Below, piece by piece: positions 2,595 through 56,915 of a stretch of DNA of 64,000 bases. The position numbers were made by a program, and so were the translations under genes. The DNA is from Brachyspira hampsonii (GTDB lineage Bacteria > Spirochaetota > Brachyspiria > Brachyspirales > Brachyspiraceae). Position 1 is the stretch's first letter. Each line of letters begins with the position of its first letter. The stretch covers positions 1,612,001 to 1,676,000 of the forward strand of contig NZ_CP019914.1 in the NCBI RefSeq assembly GCF_002214805.1, given 5' to 3'. Under the pieces are notes generated by a model, which was not told the origin of the DNA, did not search any database, and saw only the letters and a list, made by a program, of their open reading frames with translations.

Positions 2595-3760
2595 AAATGA
2601 AATATGAATTGGCAACTTTAAGTTGGGATGAAAAAGAAAAAGAAGCAATAAAAAGGGTTATGGATTCAGATATTTACACAATGGGAGAAAATGTATATAA
2701 ATTTGAAGAAATGTTTGCTCAGTATGTAGGAAGCAAATATGCAGTTATGGTTAATTCTGGCTCATCAGCTAATTTATTGATGATAGCCTCTTTATTTTAT
2801 TCTAAAACATTTAACATAAAAAAAGGAGATGAGGTTATTGTTCCTGCTGTATCTTGGTCAACTACATACATGCCATTACAACAATATGGTCTGAAACTTA
2901 AATTTATAGATATAGATATAAATACATTAAATTTTGATTTGGAAAAACTAAAAAGAGCAATAACAGATAAAACTAAAATAGTGTTTGCTGTTAATTTACT
3001 TGGGAACCCTAATGATTATGATAAAATAAAAGAGTTTATTGGGGATAAAAATATTATTCTCTTAGAAGATAATTGCGAATCTTTAGGTGCAATATATAAA
3101 GGTAAACAGTTAGGTACTATAGGGCTTATGGGGACATACTCTACTTTTTTTTCACATCATATGGCTACTATGGAAGGAGGATTAGTAGTAACATATGATG
3201 AAGAATTATACCATATATTACTTTCTTTAAGAGCCCATGGTTGGACTAGGCAATTACCAAAAAATAATAAATTGTGCGTAAAATCAGATAACCCATTTGA
3301 AGAAAGTTTTAGATTTATTTTACCAGGATATAATGTCAGACCTTTGGAAATGAGTGGAGCTCTAGGAATAGAACAATTAAAAAAACTATCTAAATTTATA
3401 GAAGAGCGTAGAAAAAATGCAACTTATTTCGTAGATAAATTTAAAGATGACAATAGATTCATCATACAAAAAGAAATAGAACAATCTAGTTGGTTTGGAT
3501 TTTCTTTTATAATAAAAGAAAATGTTAAAATTTCAAGAAAAGATATCATAAATAAGTTTTTGTTAAATGATATAGAAGTACGTCCAATAGTTAGCGGTAA
3601 TTTCTTAAAAAATGAAGTTATTAAATACTTTGATTATGAAATATTTGAAGATGTAAATAATGCTGAATTACTAGATAAAAATGGATTTTTTGTGGGCAAT
3701 CATCACTTTGATATAAGAGACAAAATAGATTATTTGGAAAACATATTGGGAGAATTATAA
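2591..3760 (+). CDS. colD: GDP-4-keto-6-deoxymannose 3-dehydratase (ColD-type)
   Basis: A 389-residue PLP enzyme of the DegT/DnrJ/EryC1/StrS fold, almost the length of E. coli Col[11 protein letters not shown] binds the PLP phosphate and [10 protein letters not shown] holds the aspartate that pairs with the PLP nitrogen. Where ordinary sugar aminotransferases carry the Schiff-base lysine, this protein reads [14 protein letters not shown], with histidines at 189-190. Histidine in place of lysine is the hallmark of ColD and related 3-dehydratases, which remove the C3 hydroxyl instead of making a stable amino sugar. It overlaps colC by 4 bases and ends 2 bases before gmd, so translation is probably coupled. 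Confidence 0.85.
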
Positions 3761-3762
3761 AT

Positions 3763-4761
3763 ATGAAAAAAGCACTTATTACAGGAATTACAGGACAAGA
3801 TGGTTCTTATTTAGCAGAACTTTTATTAGAAAAAGGATATGAAGTACATGGTATCATAAGAAGAAGTTCATCACTTAATACTGAAAGAATAGATCATTTG
3901 TATAAAGATCCGCATATTAATGATGTAAAAATGTTTCTTCATTATGGAGATTTATCAGACAGCTCTAATTTATCAAGAGTGTTAGAAAAAGTTCAGCCTG
4001 ATGAAATATATAATTTAGCAGCACAAAGTCATGTAAGGGTAAGTTTTGATATGCCGGAATATACTGCTGATGTTGTAGGTCTTGGCACTATAAGAATACT
4101 TGATGCTATAAAAGATACTCGAATAAAAACTAAATTCTATCAGGCATCAACAAGCGAACTATATGGGAAAGTTGTTGAAACTCCTCAAACAGAAAAAACA
4201 CCTTTCTATCCTAGAAGTCCGTATGCATGTGCTAAATTATATTCATATTGGATAACTGTAAATTATAGAGAAAGCTATGATATGTACGCTTGTAATGGGA
4301 TATTATTTAATCATGAAAGCCCTAGAAGAGGGGAGACTTTTGTTACTAAAAAGATTACTCATGCTATAGCTAGAATACTTAATAAAGAACAGGATAAATT
4401 ATATTTAGGAAACTTGGATTCTAAAAGAGACTGGGGATATGCTAAGGATTATGTTGAAGCTATGTGGCTTATGCTTCAGCAAGAAAAGGCTGATGATTAT
4501 GTTATAGCTACAGGTGAAACTCATTCAGTAAGAGAATTTTTAGATGAAGCTTTCGGACTTGTTGGACTAGATTGGAAAAAATATGTAGAGATAGATCCTA
4601 GATATTACAGACCTGCTGAGGTTGATCTTTTACTTGGAGATCCTACAAAGGCAAAAGAAAAATTAGGATGGAAACCAAAAACTACTTTCAAAGAATTAGT
4701 AAAAATAATGCTTGAATATGATTTAAATAAGGTTAATTTAAGTTTAAATGATTTTAATTAA
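3763..4761 (+). CDS. gmd: GDP-mannose 4,6-dehydratase
   Basis: A 332-residue extended SDR converting GDP-D-mannose to GDP-4-keto-6-deoxy-D-mannose, the shared precursor of fucose, colitose, rhamnose and perosamine. [15 protein letters not shown] is the NADP-binding motif typical of Gmd, with [15 protein letters not shown] near residue 40, STSELYG around 127, and SPYACAKLY containing YxxxK. It is slightly shorter than the usual 345-370. It follows colD by 2 bases and ends the operon at a strong hairpin (4962-5001). With colD and colC it supplies a complete path from GDP-mannose to GDP-L-colitose. Mannose-activating genes (manB/manC) are not in the window. Confidence 0.93.
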
Positions 4762-5017: not shown

Positions 5018-6469
5018 TTATTCGCTTAAAATTTTTCTTAAAACTTCATTAACAAGTTTAGGGTTGCCCTGTCCTTTAGTAGCTTTCATAGTCTGACCTA
5101 CTAAGAATCCGAATGATTTTTCTTTACCTGCCTTGAAGTCAGCAACTGATTTAGGATTTTCTTCTAAAACTTTTCTAATTATTGTTTCAAGCTCTCCTGT
5201 ATCGCTAACTTGTTTTATACCTTTTTTATCTACTATAGAAGAAGGAGCCTCACCTGTTTCACACATATCTTCAAAAATCTCTTTAGCTATTTTACCGCTT
5301 ATAACACCATCATCTATAAGTTTGAAGATTTCAGCAATATGCTCTGGCTTTGGTTTAAAATCTTTTATAGTAAGAAGTTTTTTGTTTAAGTATGCATTAA
5401 CTTCAACCATTATCCAGTTGCTTATTTTTTTAGGCTGTTTAGGATAAGCCTTAACTGCTGCCTCATAATAATCAGCTAAAGCAGCATCTTCTGTAAGCAC
5501 TACTATATCCTGATCTGGTAAATCATAATCTTTTTTAAGTCTTTCGCGTTTTTGCTGAGGAAGTTCCGGAAGCTCTTTTTTAGCATTCTCAATCTCTTCA
5601 TCTTGAAGCACTAAAAGAGGTATATCAGGGTCTGGGAAATATCTGTAATCTGCAGCACCTTCTTTTGAACGCATACCTTTAGTAGTGTTCTCTTTAGCAT
5701 CATAAAGTCTTGTTTCCTGTAAGATTTTCTCTCCATTGTTTAGAGCTTTTATTTGTCTTTTGATCTCATAGTCAATAGCAAGCCTTACATTTCTAAAACT
5801 GTTCATATTTTTTACTTCAGTTTTAACCCCAAGCTCTGTGCTTCCTTTAGGACGGATTGAAACATTCGCATCGCATCTCAAAGAACCTTCTTCCATATTA
5901 CAGTCAGAAACATCAATGTATTTGAATATCTTTTTTAGCTCTGTTAAATATTGATAAGCCTCTTCTCCTGTAGAAATATCAGGTTCGCTTACACATTCTA
6001 TCAAACAGCATCCTGCACGGTTTAAATCTACATAGCTTAAAGGTCTTCCTGTATCATCATGAACAAGTTTACCTGCATCTTCTTCCATGTGTATTCTGTT
6101 TATTCTTACGCTTTTATTATAGGAAGAGCCATCATCATTAAGAACTGTAATATCAAGATGACCTTCTGTACAAATAGGTTCGTCCATTTGAGTAATCTGA
6201 TAGTAGGAAGGTAAATCCGGATAGAAATAATGTTTTCTAGCGAATCTGCTTTTCTTTTGAATAGTGCAGTTAGTAGCAAGTCCTGCTTTGATAGTTTTAT
6301 GCACCATTTCTTTATTAACTATAGGCAAAGTACCAGGGTGAGCCTGACATCTTGGACAAGTAAGAGTGTTTGCAGGAGCACCGAAAGTGTTTGGGCATGA
6401 ACAGAATGCTTTAGTTTTAGTATTAAGCTGAACATGCACTTCTAATCCTATGACTGCTTCATATTCCAT
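5018..6469 (-). CDS. gatB: Asp/Glu-tRNA amidotransferase subunit B
   Basis: A 483-residue GatB, the subunit of GatCAB that binds mischarged Glu-tRNA(Gln) or Asp-tRNA(Asn) and activates the carboxylate with ATP. It begins with the family signature YEAVIGLEVHVQLNTKTKAF, then zinc-type cysteines in CSCPN and TCPRC. DLNRAGCCLIECVSEPD and EEGSLRCDANVSIRP are the conserved catalytic-cradle blocks. The C-terminal ~150 residues form the helical and YqeY-like tRNA-binding tail (GKIAKEIFE, GFLVGQTMK). Length is normal. gatA and gatC are not adjacent. Spirochaetes commonly use this indirect route to Gln-tRNA. Confidence 0.97.
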   Translation of the reverse strand: MEYEAVIGLEVHVQLNTKTKAFCSCPNTFGAPANTLTCPRCQAHPGTLPIVNKEMVHKTIKAGLATNCTIQKKSRFARKHYFYPDLPSYYQITQMDEPICTEGHLDITVLNDDGSSYNKSVRINRIHMEEDAGKLVHDDTGRPLSYVDLNRAGCCLIECVSEPDISTGEEAYQYLTELKKIFKYIDVSDCNMEEGSLRCDANVSIRPKGSTELGVKTEVKNMNSFRNVRLAIDYEIKRQIKALNNGEKILQETRLYDAKENTTKGMRSKEGAADYRYFPDPDIPLLVLQDEEIENAKKELPELPQQKRERLKKDYDLPDQDIVVLTEDAALADYYEAAVKAYPKQPKKISNWIMVEVNAYLNKKLLTIKDFKPKPEHIAEIFKLIDDGVISGKIAKEIFEDMCETGEAPSSIVDKKGIKQVSDTGELETIIRKVLEENPKSVADFKAGKEKSFGFLVGQTMKATKGQGNPKLVNEVLRKILSE

Positions 6470-45491: not shown

Positions 45492-46502
45492 CTATTTTTT
45501 AGAAGCATCTTTCATATAGTATTTATCCAAATTCTCTTTCATCTTTTTCAGTTTATCTTCAAATACTTTTGATATTCCTTTAATCTCTGATAAAGCATCT
45601 TCCAAATATTTTTTTTCTAGTCTTTTGCAACCTTCTACAAAACATTTCTCTATGGCATACTTGACAACAGCTTCAATATCAGCACCAGAATAACCTTCTG
45701 TTTTATCAAGAATACTAATAATATCCAATTTTGAAATATCCTGATTTCTTTTCTTTAGATGAAGCTCAAAAATCTCTTTTCTTTCTTTGGCATTAGGGAG
45801 ATCCAATCTAAATGTTTCATCAAACCTTCCCTTTCTAAAAAACTCTGAAGGAAGTGAATTGATATCATTTGAGGTAGCAACAACATAAACAGCAGATTTT
45901 TTTTCCTGAAGCCATGTAAGTATATATCCCAAAAGCCTAGTAGTTATATCGCTTGCACCTCCTGTTCCGCCAATACCAGCAAAAGCCTTTTCAATTTCAT
46001 CAATCCATAAAACACAAGGGGCGACTGCCTCAGATATTTTTATTGCCTCTCTTAAATTCTCTTCACTCTCTCCCACATATTTACCCATTAACTTACCGAT
46101 ATCAAGCCTTAAAAGAGGCATTTTAAAAATATTGGCTATTGCTTTTGAAGCTAAAGATTTTCCGCATCCCGGAAGCCCTACAAGTAAAATACCTTTTGGA
46201 ATATCCACTCCGAATTTAATTGCCTTTCCTAAATTCTTAAATATATATTCCTTATTTCTAATATAATCTTTTAAATTGTCAAGCCCGCCTATATCATCAA
46301 GACTGCTTTCATCATTTACCATTTCTATAATGCCTGATTTTTTTATTATCTGTTCTTTTTCTTTTAATATAAAAGTTTTATCTTCTAAAGATAAAGAGCC
46401 TCCTTTATTATAGGCTAAATTTAATATCTGTTTAATTTCAAATTCGCTTAGTCCTTTAAGTGAAGATATAATCTCTAATTTTTCTGTATCTTTCATTTCC
46501 AA
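45492..46502 (-). CDS. Ycf46-like AAA ATPase, C-terminal part (frameshifted gene)
   Basis: 336 residues as an independent ORF. A helical lead-in (LSEFEIKQILNLAYN), then an AAA module: Walker A GLPGCGKSLASKA, pore-type KLMGKYVGESEENL, Walker B VLWIDEIEKAF, sensor-1 ATSND, arginine fingers in FFRKGRFDE, and sensor-2 YSGADIEAVV. This is the second half of Ycf46-like ATPases. Reading upstream past the ATG in the same frame gives FPTEDDINFILDEYIKAYGL, which continues the end of the 46543-47016 ORF after a one-base change. So the two ORFs were one gene of ~505 codons. Last in the operon starting at 51513. Confidence 0.85.
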   Translation of the reverse strand: MEMKDTEKLEIISSLKGLSEFEIKQILNLAYNKGGSLSLEDKTFILKEKEQIIKKSGIIEMVNDESSLDDIGGLDNLKDYIRNKEYIFKNLGKAIKFGVDIPKGILLVGLPGCGKSLASKAIANIFKMPLLRLDIGKLMGKYVGESEENLREAIKISEAVAPCVLWIDEIEKAFAGIGGTGGASDITTRLLGYILTWLQEKKSAVYVVATSNDINSLPSEFFRKGRFDETFRLDLPNAKERKEIFELHLKKRNQDISKLDIISILDKTEGYSGADIEAVVKYAIEKCFVEGCKRLEKKYLEDALSEIKGISKVFEDKLKKMKENLDKYYMKDASKK

Positions 46503-46542
46503 ACCGTATGCTTTTATATATTCATCTAATATAAAATTAATA

Positions 46543-47016
46543 TCATCTTCTGTTGGAAAAGGTATATCTATAAACGGCAGTATATTTTTCTATTTCTTTT
46601 GGTAAATAAAATATAGGAGATACTATAAAAAGTGTTACATTATAATCATCTTTTTCTATTATTTCACGGCAAATATCCAAAATCCAAGACATAACTTCAG
46701 GATCTTTTAAATATTCATTAATATTTTTTAATACTATGAAACATTTTTGCGATGTTTTATGATATTGTTTCAAAAAAGATTTTATATCATTTTCACTTTT
46801 ATAGTTTTTAATTATTCTATCTTCATTTTTAGCCCACTCATAAATAAGCTCACTGTTCAGCCATTCATAAACTTTATAATTTTCTTCAGTTGAAGCATCA
46901 AAAATTATTTTATCAATCTTCTCAAAATCAAAATGATTAATATAAATAATAGGTCTTAAAGCATCAACATAAGATAAAATATCATTTTTTAAATCTTTTT
47001 TATTTTCTTTTTTCAT
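46543..47016 (-). CDS. Ycf46-like AAA ATPase, N-terminal part (frameshifted gene)
   Basis: 157 residues. LRPIIYINHFDFEKIDKIIF resembles the Ycf46 N-terminal domain (a non-hydrolysing P-loop-like fold), with KCFIVLKNINEYLKDPEVMS and LFIVSPIFYLPKEIEKYTAV matching its strand-helix pattern. It ends abruptly as YRYTFSNRR at a stop. If the TTTT at 46557-46560 were TTT, the frame would read YRYTFPTEDDI and run into the AAA ORF. AAGGAG precedes the ATG at 47016. Either a broken gene, a +1 frameshift, or a sequencing error. As a separate peptide it would lack ATPase motifs. Confidence 0.75.
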   Translation of the reverse strand: MKKENKKDLKNDILSYVDALRPIIYINHFDFEKIDKIIFDASTEENYKVYEWLNSELIYEWAKNEDRIIKNYKSENDIKSFLKQYHKTSQKCFIVLKNINEYLKDPEVMSWILDICREIIEKDDYNVTLFIVSPIFYLPKEIEKYTAVYRYTFSNRR

Positions 47017-47032
47017 AAATTCTCCTTAAATA

Positions 47033-47974
47033 TTAAATCTCCATATAAACTAAAGTATTTTTTTCATTAGTATTTTTTTCAACTTTAGCATTATAGTCAT
47101 TTCTATATTTTATACCATTTAATATAGGACACAATTGCCAATGATAGCCAAATAAAACTTTAAAGCATTTATTACTATCTATAGAATCCATTATAAGAGC
47201 ATTATCAGAGTATTGAGCAAAAAATAATATTAAACTTTTTTTATCTGTTAAAGTATAAAATTCACCTTTAGTATCAAAGGCACTATAAAATTTTAATTTT
47301 TCACTTAAATATGCATATTCTTCTTTTTCCCACCCAGGAGAAAAATATGATTGTTGAATGTCACCAGCTACCATTTTTTGAATATCATATTTAAATTCTT
47401 CAAGATACATTCTTATATTTTCATTTGCCAAAACTGATAGTATACCAAAAAGACATCTGCTTTCTTTAAATTTATTAAATACATCTACATAGCTATATTT
47501 GAATATATTGTAAAATTTATCCGATATTATCCTTACTCCTTCTTTTACAATATCATAATTTTTCTTATTATCTATTATATGCTGTATTAAATCATCATAC
47601 TCTTTAAAATAAGAATCAATGATTTTTTCTTTTTCTATATTAAAATTATTAATATTTTCAAGCTCTGATTTTCTTCCGCTCTCATAATCAATTACTGATA
47701 AAGCATCACGGCAAATATTATTAATAAAATCTTCGTTTTCATCTTCATAAATAATTTTTATTAAACTTTCTAACTTTTGAGAATCACTTGCCAACTTATC
47801 TATACTTAAAACCTTATTATAAATATCATCTAATTTCTGAGATAAAAACCATTTTTCTAATATTCCATTTTCAAATGCATTCAAAACATCATGAATATTA
47901 AAATTTTCTTTTAAATCACTTATGTTTCTGCAATGAACATTTCCAGACATAATATTGAATTTAATCTGCTTCAT
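47033..47974 (-). CDS. Paralog family protein 3 of the AAA operon
   Basis: 313 residues, soluble. N-terminal module: IKFNIMSGNVHCRNISDLKE, NFNIHDVLNAFENGILEKWF, shared with the next two upstream genes. A long helical middle follows. The C-terminal module is beta-rich: YTLTDKKSLILFF, ILNGIKYRN, ending VYMEI, also shared. The bases around its start (GGAGATTTAATATTTAAGGAG) are almost identical to those before the following ORF, as expected after tandem duplication. No family name known to me. It lies 16 bases before the Ycf46-like ORF. Confidence 0.7.
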   Translation of the reverse strand: MKQIKFNIMSGNVHCRNISDLKENFNIHDVLNAFENGILEKWFLSQKLDDIYNKVLSIDKLASDSQKLESLIKIIYEDENEDFINNICRDALSVIDYESGRKSELENINNFNIEKEKIIDSYFKEYDDLIQHIIDNKKNYDIVKEGVRIISDKFYNIFKYSYVDVFNKFKESRCLFGILSVLANENIRMYLEEFKYDIQKMVAGDIQQSYFSPGWEKEEYAYLSEKLKFYSAFDTKGEFYTLTDKKSLILFFAQYSDNALIMDSIDSNKCFKVLFGYHWQLCPILNGIKYRNDYNAKVEKNTNEKNTLVYMEI

Positions 47975-47992
47975 AAAATTACTCCTTAAATA

Positions 47993-49330
47993 TTAAATCT
48001 CCATATAAACCAGCTCATTATAATGTTTATTTCCTTTATAATTAATGCCGTTAAAAATAGGAAAATAACCATTAACTGAATCTATATCATATTCTTTATC
48101 ATTATCCAAACTTTTTATTACAGCGTTTTTATCCAAATGAAGTATAAGACATTTTTTATCTGTTACAGTTTTAAAATTATCTTCTGTATATTCTTTATAT
48201 ATTTTTATATTTTTTAACCAATAAAAATTTGAAATCTCCACTTCAAATATTCTAAATTCATAAAAATCAAATAAATGTTTTATACCTGTTTTTTCTCCAA
48301 GATATTCTCCAATATACTTAACTGTATCTTTTATATATTTTTCAAGTGTACTAATGATTTTATTTTGTAATGTATCTATATCATCTACACCAAAATTATT
48401 TATAATTACAGTTTTTATATCTGAATGAATATCTTTAAACATATCTTTATTGTTAATAATATTATTATTTATACATCTTGCATAATCATCAGCCTTTATA
48501 AGCTCTATATCATCTCCTAATAAATCAAAAATATAATTATCTACTTCCTTTGCAAAATTATTATTAACAAATTGGCAACAGTCCCTAATTAATTCATATT
48601 TACTTTCATTATGAACTTTATCTATATTATTGTTAAAAAAACTAAATGCAGGTGTTACAGTAAGATATAATGGAAAACCATATCTATTTAAATTTTCTTT
48701 AAATTGTTTAAAATTATATTTATGTTCTTTTTTATGAGTAAACATTTTATCTATATCTGATTTTATTTTTTCATTTTGCAGAAATATTCTTCTAATATCT
48801 TCATTAGCCAAAATAGATAATATTACATAATAATTTTTTTTATTATAAAATTTATAGAAAAAATCTTCATAATAATAATTAAATAAGCCATTATTTCCAT
48901 AATACAATATTCCTACTGCGTTTTTTATATTCTCATAATCATCTATTGCTATTTCAAAACTAAACAAACTATCATTTATTGAATTATATTGATTAATATA
49001 ATCTTCTAGCTCTGATTCTATATTTTTATTTTTTATATCAACAGTATTCTCTACAATAAAGCATGCATCTTTTACTATTGCCTCTAAATTTTCATCATCT
49101 TTAAAAAATATTCTTATAATATCTTCTATTATTTTTTTTGGACTTTCTGATTCATCTATTTTTTTTAATTCTTGAGCTAAATCATTATATTTATGAGAAA
49201 GCCATATTTTCAAATTACCATTTTTATAACTTGAAAGTATATCATTAACATTGAAATCATTCTTTAAATCTTCTATATTAGAAAATTTTTTATCTCCAAG
49301 TATTAAAGGAATATTTCTGACCTTTTTCAT
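47993..49330 (-). CDS. Paralog family protein 2 of the AAA operon
   Basis: 445 residues, the longest of the three. N-terminal module NIEDLKNDFNVNDILSSYKN followed by GNLKIWLSHKYNDLAQELKK. C-terminal module TVTDKKCLILHLDKNAVIKS, FPIFNGINYKG, VYMEI. An extra ~130-residue helical insert (~220-350) distinguishes it. The N-terminal pattern (D/N-F-N-x-D-D-I ... G-x-L-x-x-W-L) recalls a short helical module I have seen in front of many different bacterial effector-like proteins, but I cannot name it securely. Gap to neighbours 18-32 bases. Confidence 0.7.
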   Translation of the reverse strand: MKKVRNIPLILGDKKFSNIEDLKNDFNVNDILSSYKNGNLKIWLSHKYNDLAQELKKIDESESPKKIIEDIIRIFFKDDENLEAIVKDACFIVENTVDIKNKNIESELEDYINQYNSINDSLFSFEIAIDDYENIKNAVGILYYGNNGLFNYYYEDFFYKFYNKKNYYVILSILANEDIRRIFLQNEKIKSDIDKMFTHKKEHKYNFKQFKENLNRYGFPLYLTVTPAFSFFNNNIDKVHNESKYELIRDCCQFVNNNFAKEVDNYIFDLLGDDIELIKADDYARCINNNIINNKDMFKDIHSDIKTVIINNFGVDDIDTLQNKIISTLEKYIKDTVKYIGEYLGEKTGIKHLFDFYEFRIFEVEISNFYWLKNIKIYKEYTEDNFKTVTDKKCLILHLDKNAVIKSLDNDKEYDIDSVNGYFPIFNGINYKGNKHYNELVYMEI

Positions 49331-49362
49331 TTTTATTCTCCAAATAAATAATCTGATAATAC

Positions 49363-50295
49363 TTACATTTCTATATAAACTATTTTATTATTATATTGCC
49401 AATTATATCTTATTCCGTTAATTTTTATGAATTTATTGTTTATTTTATCTTTATTGTATACCTTTTCTTTATTATTAATACTTGTAACAGATGCATTTTC
49501 TATATATAAAATAATACATTCTTTATTTGATATTTCTATAAAATGACCATCAGAATTACTTTCGCTTTTTGAATAGTATTTTACATAACTAAAATCATTG
49601 TTTACTTTTTCTGATATATTTTTTATAATTTTTTCATTAATAAAATTTGATACATTATCATCTTCTTTTAAATAGTATCTCATAAAATCATTATAAAACA
49701 TACAAAATAATGCATAATAATTTTTATTCTCCATTATCTTCTTTATAAAATTTTTATAATCATAATAAAAAAAATAACTGTACCTTTCTGCAAGCAAATC
49801 TATATATGATTTTATATAGTCAGTACTATCATTAATAATAACATTTACTATCTTTTTATAATTATAAAAATACTCATCTGCTGTAGAATAATTTTTATAA
49901 TCATTGTAATTATAGTGATCATCATAATATGATATAGTAAATGCTGGAAATATTTTATCCTTTTTATATTCTGGAAAAAATGTATCTTTAAGTTCTTGTT
50001 TTACATTAACTAGCATTACCGGATGTGCCTTCAAAGGACCAATCGTATGATCAAAAATATATTTTGATTTTAATGCTTGAATTTTAGAACATAAATCTTT
50101 ATAATCATTATTTAAAAGCCATCTCTCTAATAAATCCGAATCATAATATTTTTTTATGTCATCAATATTAAAATTCTCTTTAACTTCTTCTAAAGTTCTG
50201 CATTCTTTACCGCCTATTAAAAGATTAAATTTTAATTTATTTGTTTTAATATCATCAATAGTATCTAGCATAGAATTAATTCCTATTTCACTCAT
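49363..50295 (-). CDS. Paralog family protein 1 of the AAA operon
   Basis: 310 residues. N-terminal module TLEEVKENFNIDDIKKYYDS, LLERWLLNNDYKDLCSKIQ. C-terminal module EISNKECIILYIENASVTSI, INGIRYNW, VYIEM. It has an extra ~20 residues before the module. The middle is Tyr/Asn/Lys-rich and helical. It is the first of the three tandem paralogs and follows the amphipathic helical protein by 23 bases. Confidence 0.7.
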   Translation of the reverse strand: MSEIGINSMLDTIDDIKTNKLKFNLLIGGKECRTLEEVKENFNIDDIKKYYDSDLLERWLLNNDYKDLCSKIQALKSKYIFDHTIGPLKAHPVMLVNVKQELKDTFFPEYKKDKIFPAFTISYYDDHYNYNDYKNYSTADEYFYNYKKIVNVIINDSTDYIKSYIDLLAERYSYFFYYDYKNFIKKIMENKNYYALFCMFYNDFMRYYLKEDDNVSNFINEKIIKNISEKVNNDFSYVKYYSKSESNSDGHFIEISNKECIILYIENASVTSINNKEKVYNKDKINNKFIKINGIRYNWQYNNKIVYIEM

Positions 50296-50318
50296 AATAT
50301 TTTATTTTTCCTTTAGTT

Positions 50319-51116
50319 TTAATTAAAAATTTTTTCTTTTACCAAATTTATTCCGTATTCTAGTTTTTCTTTTGCCCAGTTAACTGCTTCTTTTCCTTTT
50401 TCAAAAGCTTTTTTTATAAGAGGCTTAACATATTTATTTATGGTTTTTACTCCCAAATCAATAGCTTCAGCAATAATATTTCCAGCAAACTGACCTATGA
50501 GTTTTCCTACCATACCGCATATTTTTTTTACAGCAGGTTCGGATATAGAAACTATACTCTTCAATATGGGTGCTGCTAATGGAATATTATAAGATGCAAA
50601 TTTCTCAGCAACTTTAAAAACTGCAGCACCAGCAACTTCTCCTGCTTTCTCCATAGTGTTTTCAATGGCTATTCTTATCTTTTCCTTTACCAAAAAAGCA
50701 AGTCCTGCTGCATTTCTATCTATAACCGCAGCAACATATTCATCGGCCTCAATTTCACCTTTTCCAACTTTATATGCTAATTTTACAGCTATTAAATAAC
50801 CATCAACTATATGGGCAATTTCATCTTCTGTCTTTTCTTTGAAACTATCTCCTAATACTCCTTTTTTTGAGGCTATATACATTATAGTGGAAAATAATTT
50901 TTTCATATTAATATCATTTTCACTGTCTATCTCAGATTTCATAAAATCATTCAAAGATTTTTTCTCTCCATTAATTCCATTTATCTCAAATGATTCATCA
51001 TCTAAAATTCCAAACAATGTAAAGTTTTTAATATCTTCCATTATGTCCTGGAATAATTTCTCTCTCTCATAATCATCAGTTAAATCGTATCTATTACTTT
51101 TATTTGAATTTTCCAT
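50319..51116 (-). CDS. Helical protein with amphipathic, Gly/Ala-rich C-terminal half
   Basis: 265 residues. Residues 1-95 are acidic and helical. KKLFSTIMYIASKKGVLGDS and IVDGYLIAVKLAYKVGKGEI resemble the fold of small helical proteins. From ~130 the sequence alternates hydrophobic/glycine stretches and charged helices (VAGAAVFKVAEKFASYNIPL, KKICGMVGKLIGQFAGNIIA) and ends in a Lys-rich tail (AVNWAKEKLEYGINLVKEKI). It has no signal peptide. Such amphipathic stretches are seen in membrane-active or pore-forming proteins, but a soluble helical bundle is equally possible. Second gene of the operon. Confidence 0.7.
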   Translation of the reverse strand: MENSNKSNRYDLTDDYEREKLFQDIMEDIKNFTLFGILDDESFEINGINGEKKSLNDFMKSEIDSENDINMKKLFSTIMYIASKKGVLGDSFKEKTEDEIAHIVDGYLIAVKLAYKVGKGEIEADEYVAAVIDRNAAGLAFLVKEKIRIAIENTMEKAGEVAGAAVFKVAEKFASYNIPLAAPILKSIVSISEPAVKKICGMVGKLIGQFAGNIIAEAIDLGVKTINKYVKPLIKKAFEKGKEAVNWAKEKLEYGINLVKEKIFN

Positions 51117-52301: not shown

Positions 52302-53324
52302 TTACCTTTTAATAAGTGTAGGATGTACAAATAAACTTGCAAATCCTCTCCTTTTAGCATTATGAAGTGCTAGTAATACAGGAGCTATTTCTTTTTCCAT
52401 ACCCTCTATATGATAATTCTTTTTATATGCTGTGTATGATATGCCAACAGATATTGTGTATTTAATTATAACGCCATTGTATTCAAGTTCATTTTTATCA
52501 ACAAAACTTTTTATTTCTTCAATCTTCTTATCATATAATTTTATATTCATTCTATTGAAAGCAACCATAAACTGATTATTATCAAATCTTGCCAGAATAT
52601 CTTCTCTTCTTGTTGTTTTTTTAAGAACCTCTGTAAACTTAAGCATTATTTCTTCAGCAGCTATGATTCCATACTCGCTTATAATACTATCAAGCCCGTC
52701 TATACAAAAGCATGCAAGCACTATAGTTTCTTCATGCCTTACTGTCTCATAAAGAAGCCTTGTAAACTGCTCATAAAACTCTTTTTTATTCCAAAGCCCT
52801 GTTTCTAAATCTACATTAAGTATATCATCATATTTTTTCTGAGCATCTTTATATGACTGATAATTTCTATTAGAAACTTCTGTCATATCATTTAAAGAAT
52901 TCTGAAGATAATCTGCCTGTTTAATTAATTTCTGATGTTCTAAATAAAGTCTTCTATATTTCAAACAGCTATTAACTCTTACTACAAGCTCCATCTCATC
53001 AAATGGAATAAATATAAGTCCGTCAATACCTAAATTTATAGCTTCTTCTATAAACTCCATTTTTCTATACGGCGTACTTAAAAGAATTACAGGAGTTCCT
53101 TTAGTAGATTCCTGATTTTTAAAAGTATCAAGAAGCTGCAAACCTTGCGAGTCCCCTATATCTGCATCTAAAAGTATTAAATCCAATGTACTTTCATTGG
53201 AAATATTAACTGCCTGAGATCTGGATTTTGTTGCTATCGGATTATAATGTCTTCCTCTTAATAGATCAACAAACCTGTCTAAAAGGTCTGCTCTATGCTC
53301 TACTACTAAAATATTCTCATTCAT
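52302..53324 (-). CDS. REC-GGDEF protein with degenerate active sites
   Basis: 340 residues. Residues 1-120 are a receiver domain: LILLDADIGD holds the phospho-accepting Asp (~54), but the acidic pocket reads VEHR instead of V-D-D and the conserved lysine before the last Pro is missing (IFIPFD). A coiled region (~125-170) links to a GGDEF-fold domain (~175-335). Its signature is RFDNNQFMVA where active enzymes have RxGGDEF, so it probably cannot make cyclic-di-GMP. YTISVGIS is conserved. It may work as a binding or signalling scaffold. Upstream of tsaC on the same strand. Confidence 0.85.
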   Translation of the reverse strand: MNENILVVEHRADLLDRFVDLLRGRHYNPIATKSRSQAVNISNESTLDLILLDADIGDSQGLQLLDTFKNQESTKGTPVILLSTPYRKMEFIEEAINLGIDGLIFIPFDEMELVVRVNSCLKYRRLYLEHQKLIKQADYLQNSLNDMTEVSNRNYQSYKDAQKKYDDILNVDLETGLWNKKEFYEQFTRLLYETVRHEETIVLACFCIDGLDSIISEYGIIAAEEIMLKFTEVLKKTTRREDILARFDNNQFMVAFNRMNIKLYDKKIEEIKSFVDKNELEYNGVIIKYTISVGISYTAYKKNYHIEGMEKEIAPVLLALHNAKRRGFASLFVHPTLIKR

Positions 53325-53433: not shown

Positions 53434-53462
53434 TTGACAAATTTTGTTTATATTTATATAAT
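53434..53462 (+). promoter_or_regulatory. Consensus promoter of the methyltransferase gene
   Basis: Perfect TTGACA (53434-53439), 17-base spacer, perfect TATAAT (53457-53462). The leader is ~18 bases. Confidence 0.75.
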
Positions 53463-53485: not shown

Positions 53486-54451
53486 ATGAATTTGGATAAA
53501 ATTATAGAAAACTCATTAAAATCAAATAAAGACGATTATTGTCATAAAAATAATGAAGATAGCAGTTACTATATATTTAATAATGACTGCCGTGAAGGTT
53601 TAAAAAAAATACCTGACAATAATATAGATTTCATAGTAACAGATCCCCCATATTTTATTGACGGAATGGATAATAATTGGAATGACGGAGAATTAAAAAG
53701 AAGAAGTAAATACTCCAATGTAATAGTCGGAATACCAGCCGGAATGAAATTTGACAGAAAACAAGGTGAAAATCTTCAAAAATTTTTAGAACCTATATGT
53801 CAGGATTTTTTTAGAATATTAAAGCCCGGCGGATTTTGTATAATATTTTCTCAAGGAAGATTATATCATAGAACAGCTATGGCTTTAGATTTAGCAGGTT
53901 TTGAAATTAGAGATTTAATGGCTTGGAAATATGAGGGACAGGCTAAAGCATTTTCTCAGGATCATTTCATAAAAAAAGATAAAAATAAAACAGAAGAAGA
54001 AAAAGAAAAACTCATTGCTGAACTTAAAGGACTTAAAACTCCCCAGCTTAAACCTCAAATGGAACCTATGGTTTTAGCTCAAAAACCAAGAGAAGGAACA
54101 TTCGTTGAAAATTGGGAAAAATATCAAGTAGGTTTAATGAATACAAATGAATCTTTAGACGGTAAATTTCCCGGTACTGTTATGGAAGTATCTAAAAAGA
54201 TAAGAAAAAATGAAACAGATGAAAAGATTGAACATATGACTGTAAAACCAGTGCATTTAATTTCACATCTGATTAGACTTTTTACAAGAGAAGGTCAAAC
54301 AGTATTAGATCCTTTTGTGGGAAGCGGCTCTCATGCACTTGCTGCTCTTATGAATAACCGTAATTTTATAGGATACGAAATAGAAAAAAAATATTTTGAT
54401 ATTGCAAAAAATAGATTAGAAAAAGAAGTATCTCAAAAATCACTTTTTTAA
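53486..54451 (+). CDS. Type II DNA methyltransferase (beta class, probably N6-adenine)
   Basis: 321 residues. Catalytic motif IV DPPY is at 53-56 (FIVTDPPYFID). The SAM-binding motif I, DPFVGSGSHALAAL, lies near the C-terminus (~285), after a target-recognition region. This IV-then-I order marks the beta class (N6-adenine or N4-cytosine). DPPY rather than SPPY favours adenine. RILKPGGFCIIFSQGR is motif V/VI. It has a consensus promoter and overlaps by 12 bases the 3' end of a convergent HNH endonuclease gene, the usual partner in a restriction-modification system. Recognition site unknown. Confidence 0.9.
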   Translation: MNLDKIIENSLKSNKDDYCHKNNEDSSYYIFNNDCREGLKKIPDNNIDFIVTDPPYFIDGMDNNWNDGELKRRSKYSNVIVGIPAGMKFDRKQGENLQKFLEPICQDFFRILKPGGFCIIFSQGRLYHRTAMALDLAGFEIRDLMAWKYEGQAKAFSQDHFIKKDKNKTEEEKEKLIAELKGLKTPQLKPQMEPMVLAQKPREGTFVENWEKYQVGLMNTNESLDGKFPGTVMEVSKKIRKNETDEKIEHMTVKPVHLISHLIRLFTREGQTVLDPFVGSGSHALAALMNNRNFIGYEIEKKYFDIAKNRLEKEVSQKSLF

Positions 54452-55162
54452 TATTTTAATAAGCAACTTAAATAATTTCTCATTAGTTTCCTCTGATGAA
54501 TTTTTTATAAACTTTTCCACTATTCTAAAACCATCTTCTGTATTAGCAACTCCAATAACTCTTCCTGTCTTATCATAAATCCATTTATTTCTATCAGGTC
54601 TGTTGCAAATTTGACATTGAGGAATAATATTTCCTTCCTCTAAAGGTAAAGCAGGATTCATATGTCCTTTCTGTAAACTTACTTTAACACCTTTTCTAAA
54701 TAAATGCTCCTCTCCTTCTTTTGAACCACAAGTAGCACAGCAATAACCATAATGCTCCTTTATTTTTTCCCAATCACCTGAAAATCCTTCTCTCCTTTTT
54801 GAAGAAAAAGCAGGATACGAATTTTCTAAATCTATAAGTTTATAAGATCCAGAAGGAATATTGTAACTGCTATCTCCCCTAGTTCCTGAAATTATATTCC
54901 AACCTTTTTGCATAGATAAATGTCTTCCCTGCTGCACATCTACAACATCAGGATAATACTGTTTTATGAAATCTGTCAATTCAGATTTTGATACTATATC
55001 TGTATTCGGATAATTTTTTGCTAATCTAACTAAAACCAAAGCATTTTTAGTATATCCATTCTTATCTTTTAAAGCAGGCAATTCAACACCTTTATCAGCT
55101 AGATATTTATTATAATGATATACTATTATTTGCTATATTTTTTCTATTTCTTCATTACTCAT
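54440..55162 (-). pseudogene. HNH-type restriction endonuclease with in-frame stop at codon 10
   Basis: The ORF downstream of the stop (54440-55081, 213 residues from a TTG) contains a zinc-supported HNH site: YCCATCGSKEG, SLQKGHMNPAL, PQCQICNRPDRNKW. In the same frame, ATG 55162 has AAGGA 6 bases before it and reads MSNEEIEKI, then TAG (55133-55135), then QIIVYHYNKYLADKGVELPA into the ORF. So the natural start seems to be 55162, with a nonsense mutation at codon 10. The TTG at 55081 has no ribosome site. It pairs with the methyltransferase at 53486. The enzyme is probably inactive or made at low level by readthrough or restart. Confidence 0.75.
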
Positions 55163-55258
55163 TTTTTATCCTTAATTATTAATATATTATGAAAATCGGA
55201 TTTTTAATAATCTAACTTTTACACTTTTTAATAATTTTTTAATAATTCAAAATTATGC

Positions 55259-55325: not shown

Positions 55326-56915
55326 ATGCTTAAAAAAATTATCTCAAATATCCTAAAAGAAGCCTTAAAAGAATATTTAAAAAATACTGATATTGAAAAT
55401 ATAGAATCTTATATAGAAATAGGATATGCAGTAGACGATAAATTCGGTGATTATGCTTGCCCTGCTGCTATGAGACTTGCTAAAGTATTAAAGAAAAACC
55501 CTTTAGAAATAGCAAATGAAATAGCTGAAAAAATATATAAAAAATATTTTGACAAAATAGAAGCAGCAAAACCGGGATTCATTAATTTAACTTTATCATA
55601 TAACTACATAAATGAATGTATAAATGACCTTATTAATAATGATAACTACGGAAAAAATACAGCAGAAGATAAAAAGAAAATTTTAATAGAATATGTAAGT
55701 GCAAATCCAACAGGTCCTCTTCATATAGGTCATGGAAGATGGGCTGCTATAGGAAGTGCATTATCTAATATACTTAAATATGCAGGACATGAAGTTTATC
55801 AGGAGTTCTATGTTAATGATGCCGGCGAACAAATAACTAAATTAAATGAAAGTGTTAAAGCACTAAAAGAAGGAAGAGAAATACCTGAAGACGGTTATCA
55901 TGGCGAATATATAAAAGATATAGCAAAACAGGACGGAGTACCTAAAGACATTATACTAGAAAGTCAAAAAAAATTATTAGAAAGATTCGGAACCCACATG
56001 GATAATTATGCATCTGAATTGAAAATACGCGAAGGCGGAGAATTAGAAAAAACTATGGACTTTCTTGATAAGGAAGGGCTTTTATTTGAAGAGGATAATG
56101 CTGTTTGGTTTAGAAGTACTAAATACGGAGATGATAAAGATAGGGTTGTAAAAAAAAGTAACGGAACATACACATACTTCGCTCCGGACATTACATATCA
56201 TAAAAATAAAATCGACAGAGGGTATCATTATTTAATAGATATATTAGGTGCTGATCATCATGGTTATGTACCTAGAATCACTGCTGCTGTTAGGGCTGTT
56301 AGTAAGGATACTGCTTCTTTGAAAGTTATACTAGGACAGTTAGTTCGTCTTTACAGAGGAAATGAACTTGTTAGAATGAGCAAAAGAACAGGTGACATGA
56401 TTAGTCTTGAAGATGTTATTGATGAGATAGGGGTTGATCCCACTAGATATTTCTTACTTATGCGTTCATATTCAAGCTCTCTTGATTTTGATTTGGAGCT
56501 TGCTAAGAAAAAGGATAATGATAATCCTGTTTATTATGTTCAATATGCTTATGCTAGAATTTGTAATATATTCTTTAAATTAGAAGAAAAAAATATGTCT
56601 TATGATGATAATAAGCCTTTTGATATTTCAAAAATTGCTAATGAAAGCTCTTTAAAGCTTGCTAAAATAATACTAAGATTCCCTGATGAAATAAATGAAT
56701 CGGCTAAATCTTTAGAAGTTTATACTCTTATTAATTATACTTATGAAATAGCTGGTGCATTGCATAGATTTTACTACGACAATATTGTACTAGAAGAAAA
56801 TGCAGAAATAAGACAGGAAAGACTTACTCTAATTAAAGCTGTTAAAAAAATACTTGGTATATGCTTTGATATAATAGGAATAACTAAAATAGAGAGAATG
56901 TGGTCTGAAGAATAA
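55326..56915 (+). CDS. argS: Arginyl-tRNA synthetase
   Basis: 529 residues, class [20 protein letters not shown] contains the HIGH motif at 133-136. [17 protein letters not shown] is the KMSKS-type loop. The N-terminal additional domain ([20 protein letters not shown]) binds the tRNA D-loop, and the C-terminal anticodon domain ends [20 protein letters not shown]. Length is close to the bacterial norm. AGGAG precedes the ATG. Monocistronic as far as can be seen, followed by repeat locus G. Confidence 0.96.

What the first reader, a model, noticed from the sequence alone, without database searches (positions are those of the whole stretch)
54440..55162. Restriction enzyme gene carries a nonsense codon while its methyltransferase is intact
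Seen: ATG 55162 with AAGGA starts a frame that hits TAG at codon 10, then continues open into the HNH endonuclease. The convergent methyltransferase (53486-54451) has a consensus promoter and all motifs. Known: loss of restriction with retained modification is a common decay path. The genome is probably still methylated at the site.
Basis: partly seen in the sequence, partly recalled or inferred. Interest (0 to 1): 0.55.

Follow-up and report, generated by a model that had tools for sequence, protein, structure and literature searches.

The report
Restriction gene with premature stop codon
In this Brachyspira genome the cutting enzyme of a small DNA restriction-modification pair is interrupted by an early stop codon while its partner DNA-marking enzyme is intact, a common and ordinary way for such systems to decay.

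Summary
The minus-strand frame from ATG 55162 (AAGGA at 55173-55169) meets TAG at codon 10 (55135-55133), then stays open for 230 codons to 54440.

The frame is a winged-helix plus zinc-HNH protein beside a beta-class DPPY methyltransferase (53486-54451), a Type II R-M pair by anatomy. The stop cuts off the N-terminal helix, so loss of restriction is likely but not proven; weak restart at TTG 55081 stays open. No TAG-reading tRNA is among the 33 tRNAs found.

New here: the pair sits between argS and a response regulator in a clade of four genomes (two intact, one nonsense, one with the nuclease gene deleted and a 3' relic left; support 100). The methyltransferase is kept in all four, under purifying selection. 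Two genomes of the neighbouring clade have the site empty. So the nuclease was lost twice by different lesions while the methyltransferase stayed.

This is a known decay path, a new case of a known kind. Other strains of this species, and methylation itself, could not be checked.

The parts
54440..55162 (-). Frame of the restriction nuclease (R), interrupted at codon 10
55133..55135 (-). Premature TAG, codon 10; sense codon in 5 of 5 near relatives
55160..55173 (-). AAGGA ribosome-binding-like site and ATG start
   Evidence: ATG aligned in the five near relatives
54440..55081 (-). Possible fallback ORF of 213 aa from TTG 55081; an AAAGG lies 7 bases upstream of the TTG
   Evidence: none of the relatives aligned starts here
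54821..55144 (-). Predicted winged-helix-like domain of R (residues about 7-114); its first helix (residues 3-24) is cut off by the stop
   Evidence: model of the B. hampsonii 30446 homologue; same numbering, as the two align without gaps
54551..54790 (-). Predicted zinc-HNH nuclease domain (residues about 125-204; C..CG, GHMNP, NIIPQCQxCN), intact in the window
53486..54451 (+). Beta-class DNA methyltransferase (M), 321 aa, intact
53642..53653 (+). Catalytic motif DPPY of M
   Evidence: motif name recalled
54308..54334 (+). AdoMet-binding motif DPFVGSGSH of M
   Evidence: motif name recalled
53434..53462 (+). Consensus promoter of M (TTGACA-17-TATAAT)
   Evidence: both hexamers unchanged in G004 and G005, one change in the second hexamer in G024 (read by eye)
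55326..56915 (+). argS, right flank of the R-M insertion (gene name recalled from its sequence)
52302..53324 (-). Response regulator with GGDEF-like domain, left flank of the R-M insertion (names recalled, not searched)

Best explanation
A Type II restriction-modification pair, M and R convergent and overlapping at their 3' ends, was inserted between argS and a response-regulator gene in the ancestor of a clade that includes B. hampsonii 30446. In this genome the R gene has since taken a nonsense codon at codon 10, which cuts off the start and first helix of its winged-helix-like DNA-binding domain, so restriction is most likely lost. M, with its own promoter and motifs, is intact and most likely still methylates the genome at its (unknown) site. 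Shown: the stop, the conserved upstream segment in relatives, intact M, the same insertion site in four genomes that form a clade, R missing by another lesion in one of them. Inferred: loss of cleavage, continued methylation, one ancestral insertion.
For: Stop and frame. Five intact relatives share the start and the segment. The first helix (residues 3-24) is confidently modelled in the homologue (block pLDDT 93, 97, 89; 97 is the highest of all blocks) and lies in a winged-helix-like domain. A model that starts at residue 28 is less confident, mean pLDDT 78 against 84, with the caveat that the two models are of different proteins. No tRNA with anticodon CTA among the 33 tRNAs found in the genome. 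M kept: window-branch counts 19 synonymous to 6 non-synonymous, beside argS 41:6 and the regulator 14:3. Same site, R gone, M kept in G024; empty site in G006 and G025; G000, G004, G005 and G024 form a clade with support 100 on the regulator-gene tree.
Against: The HNH domain downstream of the stop is intact, and R changes on the window branch (9 synonymous, 11 non-synonymous) are not clearly relaxed: Fisher p 0.06 against M, 0.09 against R of G004, and the intact G005 R has more (6:17). So the lesion is recent or a shorter product still works. TTG 55081 with AAAGG 7 bases upstream could allow restart. A sequencing error at one base cannot be excluded without reads.
Confidence: 0.8

Rival explanations
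1. The gene is still active from TTG 55081: a 213-aa nuclease without the first helix is made by restart after the stop, perhaps at low level.
For: TTG in frame, AAAGG 7 bases upstream; codons after the TTG have 9 synonymous to 6 non-synonymous changes on the window branch while codons 1-27 have 0:5, the nonsense change included (p 0.005); in the 8-row alignment with Thermus all invariant columns lie at residue 39 or later.
Against: None of the relatives aligned starts there. The same N-terminal excess is seen on the branch of the intact G005 gene (0:7 in codons 1-27, 6:10 after), so it marks a fast-evolving N-terminus, not a moved start. L21 is invariant and G25 nearly so in the 10-row alignment, and the helix is modelled with high confidence.
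Confidence: 0.13
2. The TAG is an assembly or sequencing error and the pair is intact.
For: One base decides it; no reads or second strain could be seen.
Against: Single-contig genome, 99.98% complete; the neighbouring argS, M and regulator frames are open; a genome of the same clade shows R loss at the same locus by another lesion.
Confidence: 0.05
3. The stop is read through often enough to give some full-length enzyme (suppression or leaky UAG).
For: The bases after the stop are CAA, which recalls leaky UAG contexts known from plant viruses (recalled, not searched).
Against: No CTA-anticodon tRNA among the 33 tRNAs found; none of the five near relatives has a stop there.
Confidence: 0.02

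Closest known systems
Decayed Type II R-M systems with retained methyltransferase (PabI family in Helicobacter; haloarchaeal Type II MTases)
   Same: R genes broken by nonsense, frameshift or deletion (some H. pylori R.PabI homologues) and an M beside a disrupted R (H. macacae), PMC4615327 passages; decay that begins with the nuclease, PMC6471742 passages.
   Different: Other nuclease family (PabI is a glycosylase); here two losses by different lesions at one locus in one Brachyspira clade.
HpyAV/Hin4II HNH restriction systems (a relative is reported in B. hyodysenteriae)
   Same: HNH-type Type II nuclease beside a methyltransferase, in the same host genus; one H. pylori homologue has a deletion that brings a stop into R (PMC2816704 passages).
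   Different: HpyAV is 419 aa with an M of 823 aa fusing C5 and N6A domains; here R is 240 codons and M a single 321-aa domain. Sequence similarity to HpyAV was not tested.
Thermus plasmid R-M pairs (pTthSNM1-7d, pTCCB09)
   Same: About 41% identical R ('hypothetical protein') beside a 41-43% identical methyltransferase.
   Different: R and M in tandem, R 272-282 aa with a longer N-terminus; site unknown.
Prevotellaceae MAG pair (L037)
   Same: R 66%, M 70% identical, convergent with 3' ends overlapping by a few bases; both frames open.
   Different: Other phylum, other flanks: suggests horizontal transfer (inference).

Membership tests
Type II restriction-modification system (HNH nuclease + beta-class MTase) | Separate MTase gene with motifs DPPY and FxGxG-like | tested here: met
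   PF01555 E 5.7e-37; PADLOC MTase_II E 6.5e-53; DPPY and DPFxGSGSH in 7 of 7 aligned M
Type II restriction-modification system (HNH nuclease + beta-class MTase) | Adjacent gene of a nuclease fold that travels with the MTase | tested here: met
   PHROG 1271 HNH E 1.3e-5; HNH-like fold in residues 124-204, best Z 5.6, which is middling; R beside M in 5 of 5 Brachyspira genomes with R and in L037, L068, L069, L082; but in 8 of 9 viral-contig loci no such M was found in the fetched stretch
Type II restriction-modification system (HNH nuclease + beta-class MTase) | Cleavage of unmethylated site and protection by M | not testable with these tools
   No biochemistry; no PDB relative by sequence for R
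Orphan methyltransferase by R decay | Cognate R gene broken or absent | tested here: met
   TAG at codon 10; R absent beside M in G024
Orphan methyltransferase by R decay | M intact and under purifying selection | tested here: met
   19 synonymous, 6 non-synonymous on the window branch, pN/pS 0.07; 0.16 on the G024 branch
Orphan methyltransferase by R decay | Genome methylated at the site | not testable with these tools
   No single-molecule data

The most novel reading that the evidence does not exclude
R has been lost twice by different lesions in a clade of four genomes while M was kept every time. M may therefore have gained a host role (epigenetic regulation, or protection against R still present in related strains) and is no longer just a relic; the window's shortened R might even act as a weak nuclease or repressor.
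Probability: 0.2. Interest if true: 0.4.

Novelty: new member of a known kind. Interest (0 to 1): 0.22.

Why it matters
It gives a clean natural series at one chromosomal site (empty, intact, nonsense, deletion with relic) for the step-by-step decay of a small R-M system in Brachyspira. It also points to an apparently uncharacterised winged-helix/HNH nuclease group, without a Pfam or NCBIfam model of its own, shared by Brachyspira, a Prevotellaceae MAG, Thermus plasmids and viral contigs.

Tried and rejected
Relaxed selection as proof of decay: counts are too few and the intact G005 gene has more non-synonymous change still. Moved start at TTG: the N-terminal excess of non-synonymous changes is also on an intact branch. 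Suppressor tRNA: none among 33 found (in which 150 of 195 first-look candidates were scored); the window itself has no tRNA. Second close M copy in the genome: the next best match is E 1.1e-15 over 80 residues. Wider distribution: 5 of 392 genomes of the phylum (a sample of a larger group) match R, all in the genus; no match in 50,697 phage records, 2 Thermus plasmids in 72,556 records; a first viral-contig scan found no relative, a second with an alignment found 9 loci. The genome-contig scan gave 2 loci, by six exact peptide patterns, so it is far from exhaustive. PDB by sequence gave nothing for R (one match, E 0.51) and Foldseek nothing at E <= 0.001; VIA-align Z is at most 7.3, so fold names are suggestive only. 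Target site of M: no solved relative close enough, not pursued. Papers: listings and passages of PMC2816704, PMC4615327, PMC6471742, PMC12707154; no title or abstract start in those listings was about this locus, and I read no paper whole. A first DNA alignment mixed strands and was not used, save to see that the G005 start region aligns.

Full report
Observation. On the minus strand an AAGGA (55173-55169) and ATG (55162) start a frame that meets TAG at codon 10 (55135-55133) and then stays open for 230 codons to 54440. The other five frames over the same stretch have runs of at most 47 codons. Convergent to it lies an intact 321-codon methyltransferase, 53486-54451, the two frames overlapping by 12 bp at their ends. 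The promoter upstream of M is a perfect consensus.

Are the first codons really part of the gene? Yes. A search of 26 genomes of the genus with the part after the stop found 5 with a match, the window's own included. The genus is Brachyspira: the contig of G005 has the length and place of B. hampsonii 30446 scaffold00003. The four others and a Prevotellaceae MAG are intact, and all five start at the ATG aligned with 55162 and carry an aromatic sense codon at codon 10. A profile search finds the window's frame over its full length with one TAG inside. Relatives from viral contigs (31-39% identical over the best segments of the eight longer matches) also have an N-terminal segment in the seven that I aligned, with L21 invariant and G25 nearly so (their starts were chosen by me). 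The two Thermus relatives have a longer N-terminus.

What the proteins are. M matches N6_N4_Mtase (PF01555, E 5.7e-37) and PADLOC Type II MTases; DPPY precedes the AdoMet motif, the beta order (class recalled). R has no Pfam, NCBIfam or PADLOC family, one PHROG hit to HNH endonuclease (E 1.3e-5) and the motif set C..CG, GHMNP, NIIPQCQxCN. The model of the B. hampsonii 30446 homologue (mean pLDDT 84, pTM 0.55) shows a first domain like winged helices of Fur-type regulators (residues 7-114, Z up to 7.3) and a second like HNH nucleases (124-204, Z up to 5.6); these Z values are middling and Foldseek itself gave nothing at E <= 0.001. R lies beside M in all five Brachyspira genomes that have R, in the MAG, on two Thermus plasmids and in one viral contig. 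In the other 8 of 9 viral-contig loci no M of this kind was found in the fetched stretch.

What the stop does. It cuts off the start and helix 3-24, which holds the most confident block of the model (blocks 93, 97, 89). A model of the window protein from residue 28 is less sure of itself (mean 78.1, five models 78.1 to 60.0, against 84.2 and 84.2 to 76.5 for the homologue), but the two models are of different proteins, so this is weak. No tRNA with anticodon CTA is among the 33 tRNAs found. A restart at TTG 55081, with AAAGG 7 bases upstream, is possible. Codons before it have more non-synonymous change on the window branch (5 on 67.5 sites, the nonsense included, against 6 on 511, p 0.005), but the intact G005 branch shows the same (7 on 68 against 10 on 510, not tested), so this is no sign of a moved start.

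History of the locus. The response-regulator gene on the left was found in 26 of 26 genomes. M and R stand between it and argS in G000, G004 and G005; in G024 only M does, followed by argS, with a short stretch matching the 3' end of R left (the relic was matched by eye; G024 is 85% complete but one contig spans the site). In G006 and G025 regulator and argS are neighbours without M or R. In the other 20 of 26, no argS match lay in the fetched flank, so nothing is said of them. A tree of the regulator gene puts G000, G004, G005 and G024 in one clade (support 100), beside a clade with G006 and G025 (99; the node joining the two clades has support 40). G011 and G001 have the pair elsewhere. Strong M matches (68% identity or more) are in 6 of 26 genomes, R in 5. 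Thus R was lost in two of four genomes of the clade by different lesions and M kept in four of four. G024's M has lost its last three residues.

Selection. Window-branch changes, synonymous to non-synonymous: M 19:6, argS 41:6, regulator 14:3, R 9:11. M behaves like a working gene; its pN/pS is 0.07, 0.11, 0.12 and 0.16 on the window, G004, G005 and G024 branches (simple parsimony counts). R is higher but not significantly (p 0.06 against M, 0.09 against R of G004), and the intact G005 R is higher still (6:17), so the counts neither date nor prove the decay.

Known or new. Loss of the nuclease with retention of the methyltransferase is described: disrupted R.PabI genes in Helicobacter (PMC4615327, passages), decay that begins with the nuclease in haloarchaea (PMC6471742, passages), lineage-specific orphan modification enzymes (PMC12707154, passages). 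The case is a new member of that kind. My paper searches listed no paper that, by title and abstract start, is about this locus.

Limits. One genome per species is held, so strain variation at codon 10 is untested; there are no reads and no methylation data; the target site is unknown.

Noticed in passing
L038 (G024:C121) 3382-4453: Related genome keeps M but has lost R; M ends three codons early and only a short 3' relic of R remains before argS.
   Followed up: yes
L039 (G004) about 5531-5926: The gap between the response regulator and M is 394 bp in G004 against 161 bp in the window: about 230 bp of extra AT-rich sequence of unknown nature.
   Followed up: no
L046 and L047 (G006, G025), argS-regulator intergenic space: The empty site is about 510-560 bp of AT-rich DNA with short GC-richer blocks (CGCACGGTAA in both, GGGTGGG in G006), which by eye are not seen in the spacers beside the R-M pair; may be the replaced segment.
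   Followed up: no
window 45492-51116, minus strand: Run of genes with an AAA+ ATPase-like protein and several paralogue-like proteins that share an N-terminal pattern around 'FN(L/I)xxGxKxCxxLEDVK' and often end in 'YME(I/M)'; similar genes lie beside the locus in L036.
   Followed up: no
L068 5818-7606 and L069 5713-7493 (Thermus plasmids): Relatives of R annotated only as hypothetical protein, directly before a related methyltransferase: probably unrecognised restriction genes.
   Followed up: partly
L075-L083 (viral contigs): Nine viral contigs carry relatives of R; only L082 has the related methyltransferase within the fetched stretch.
   Followed up: partly
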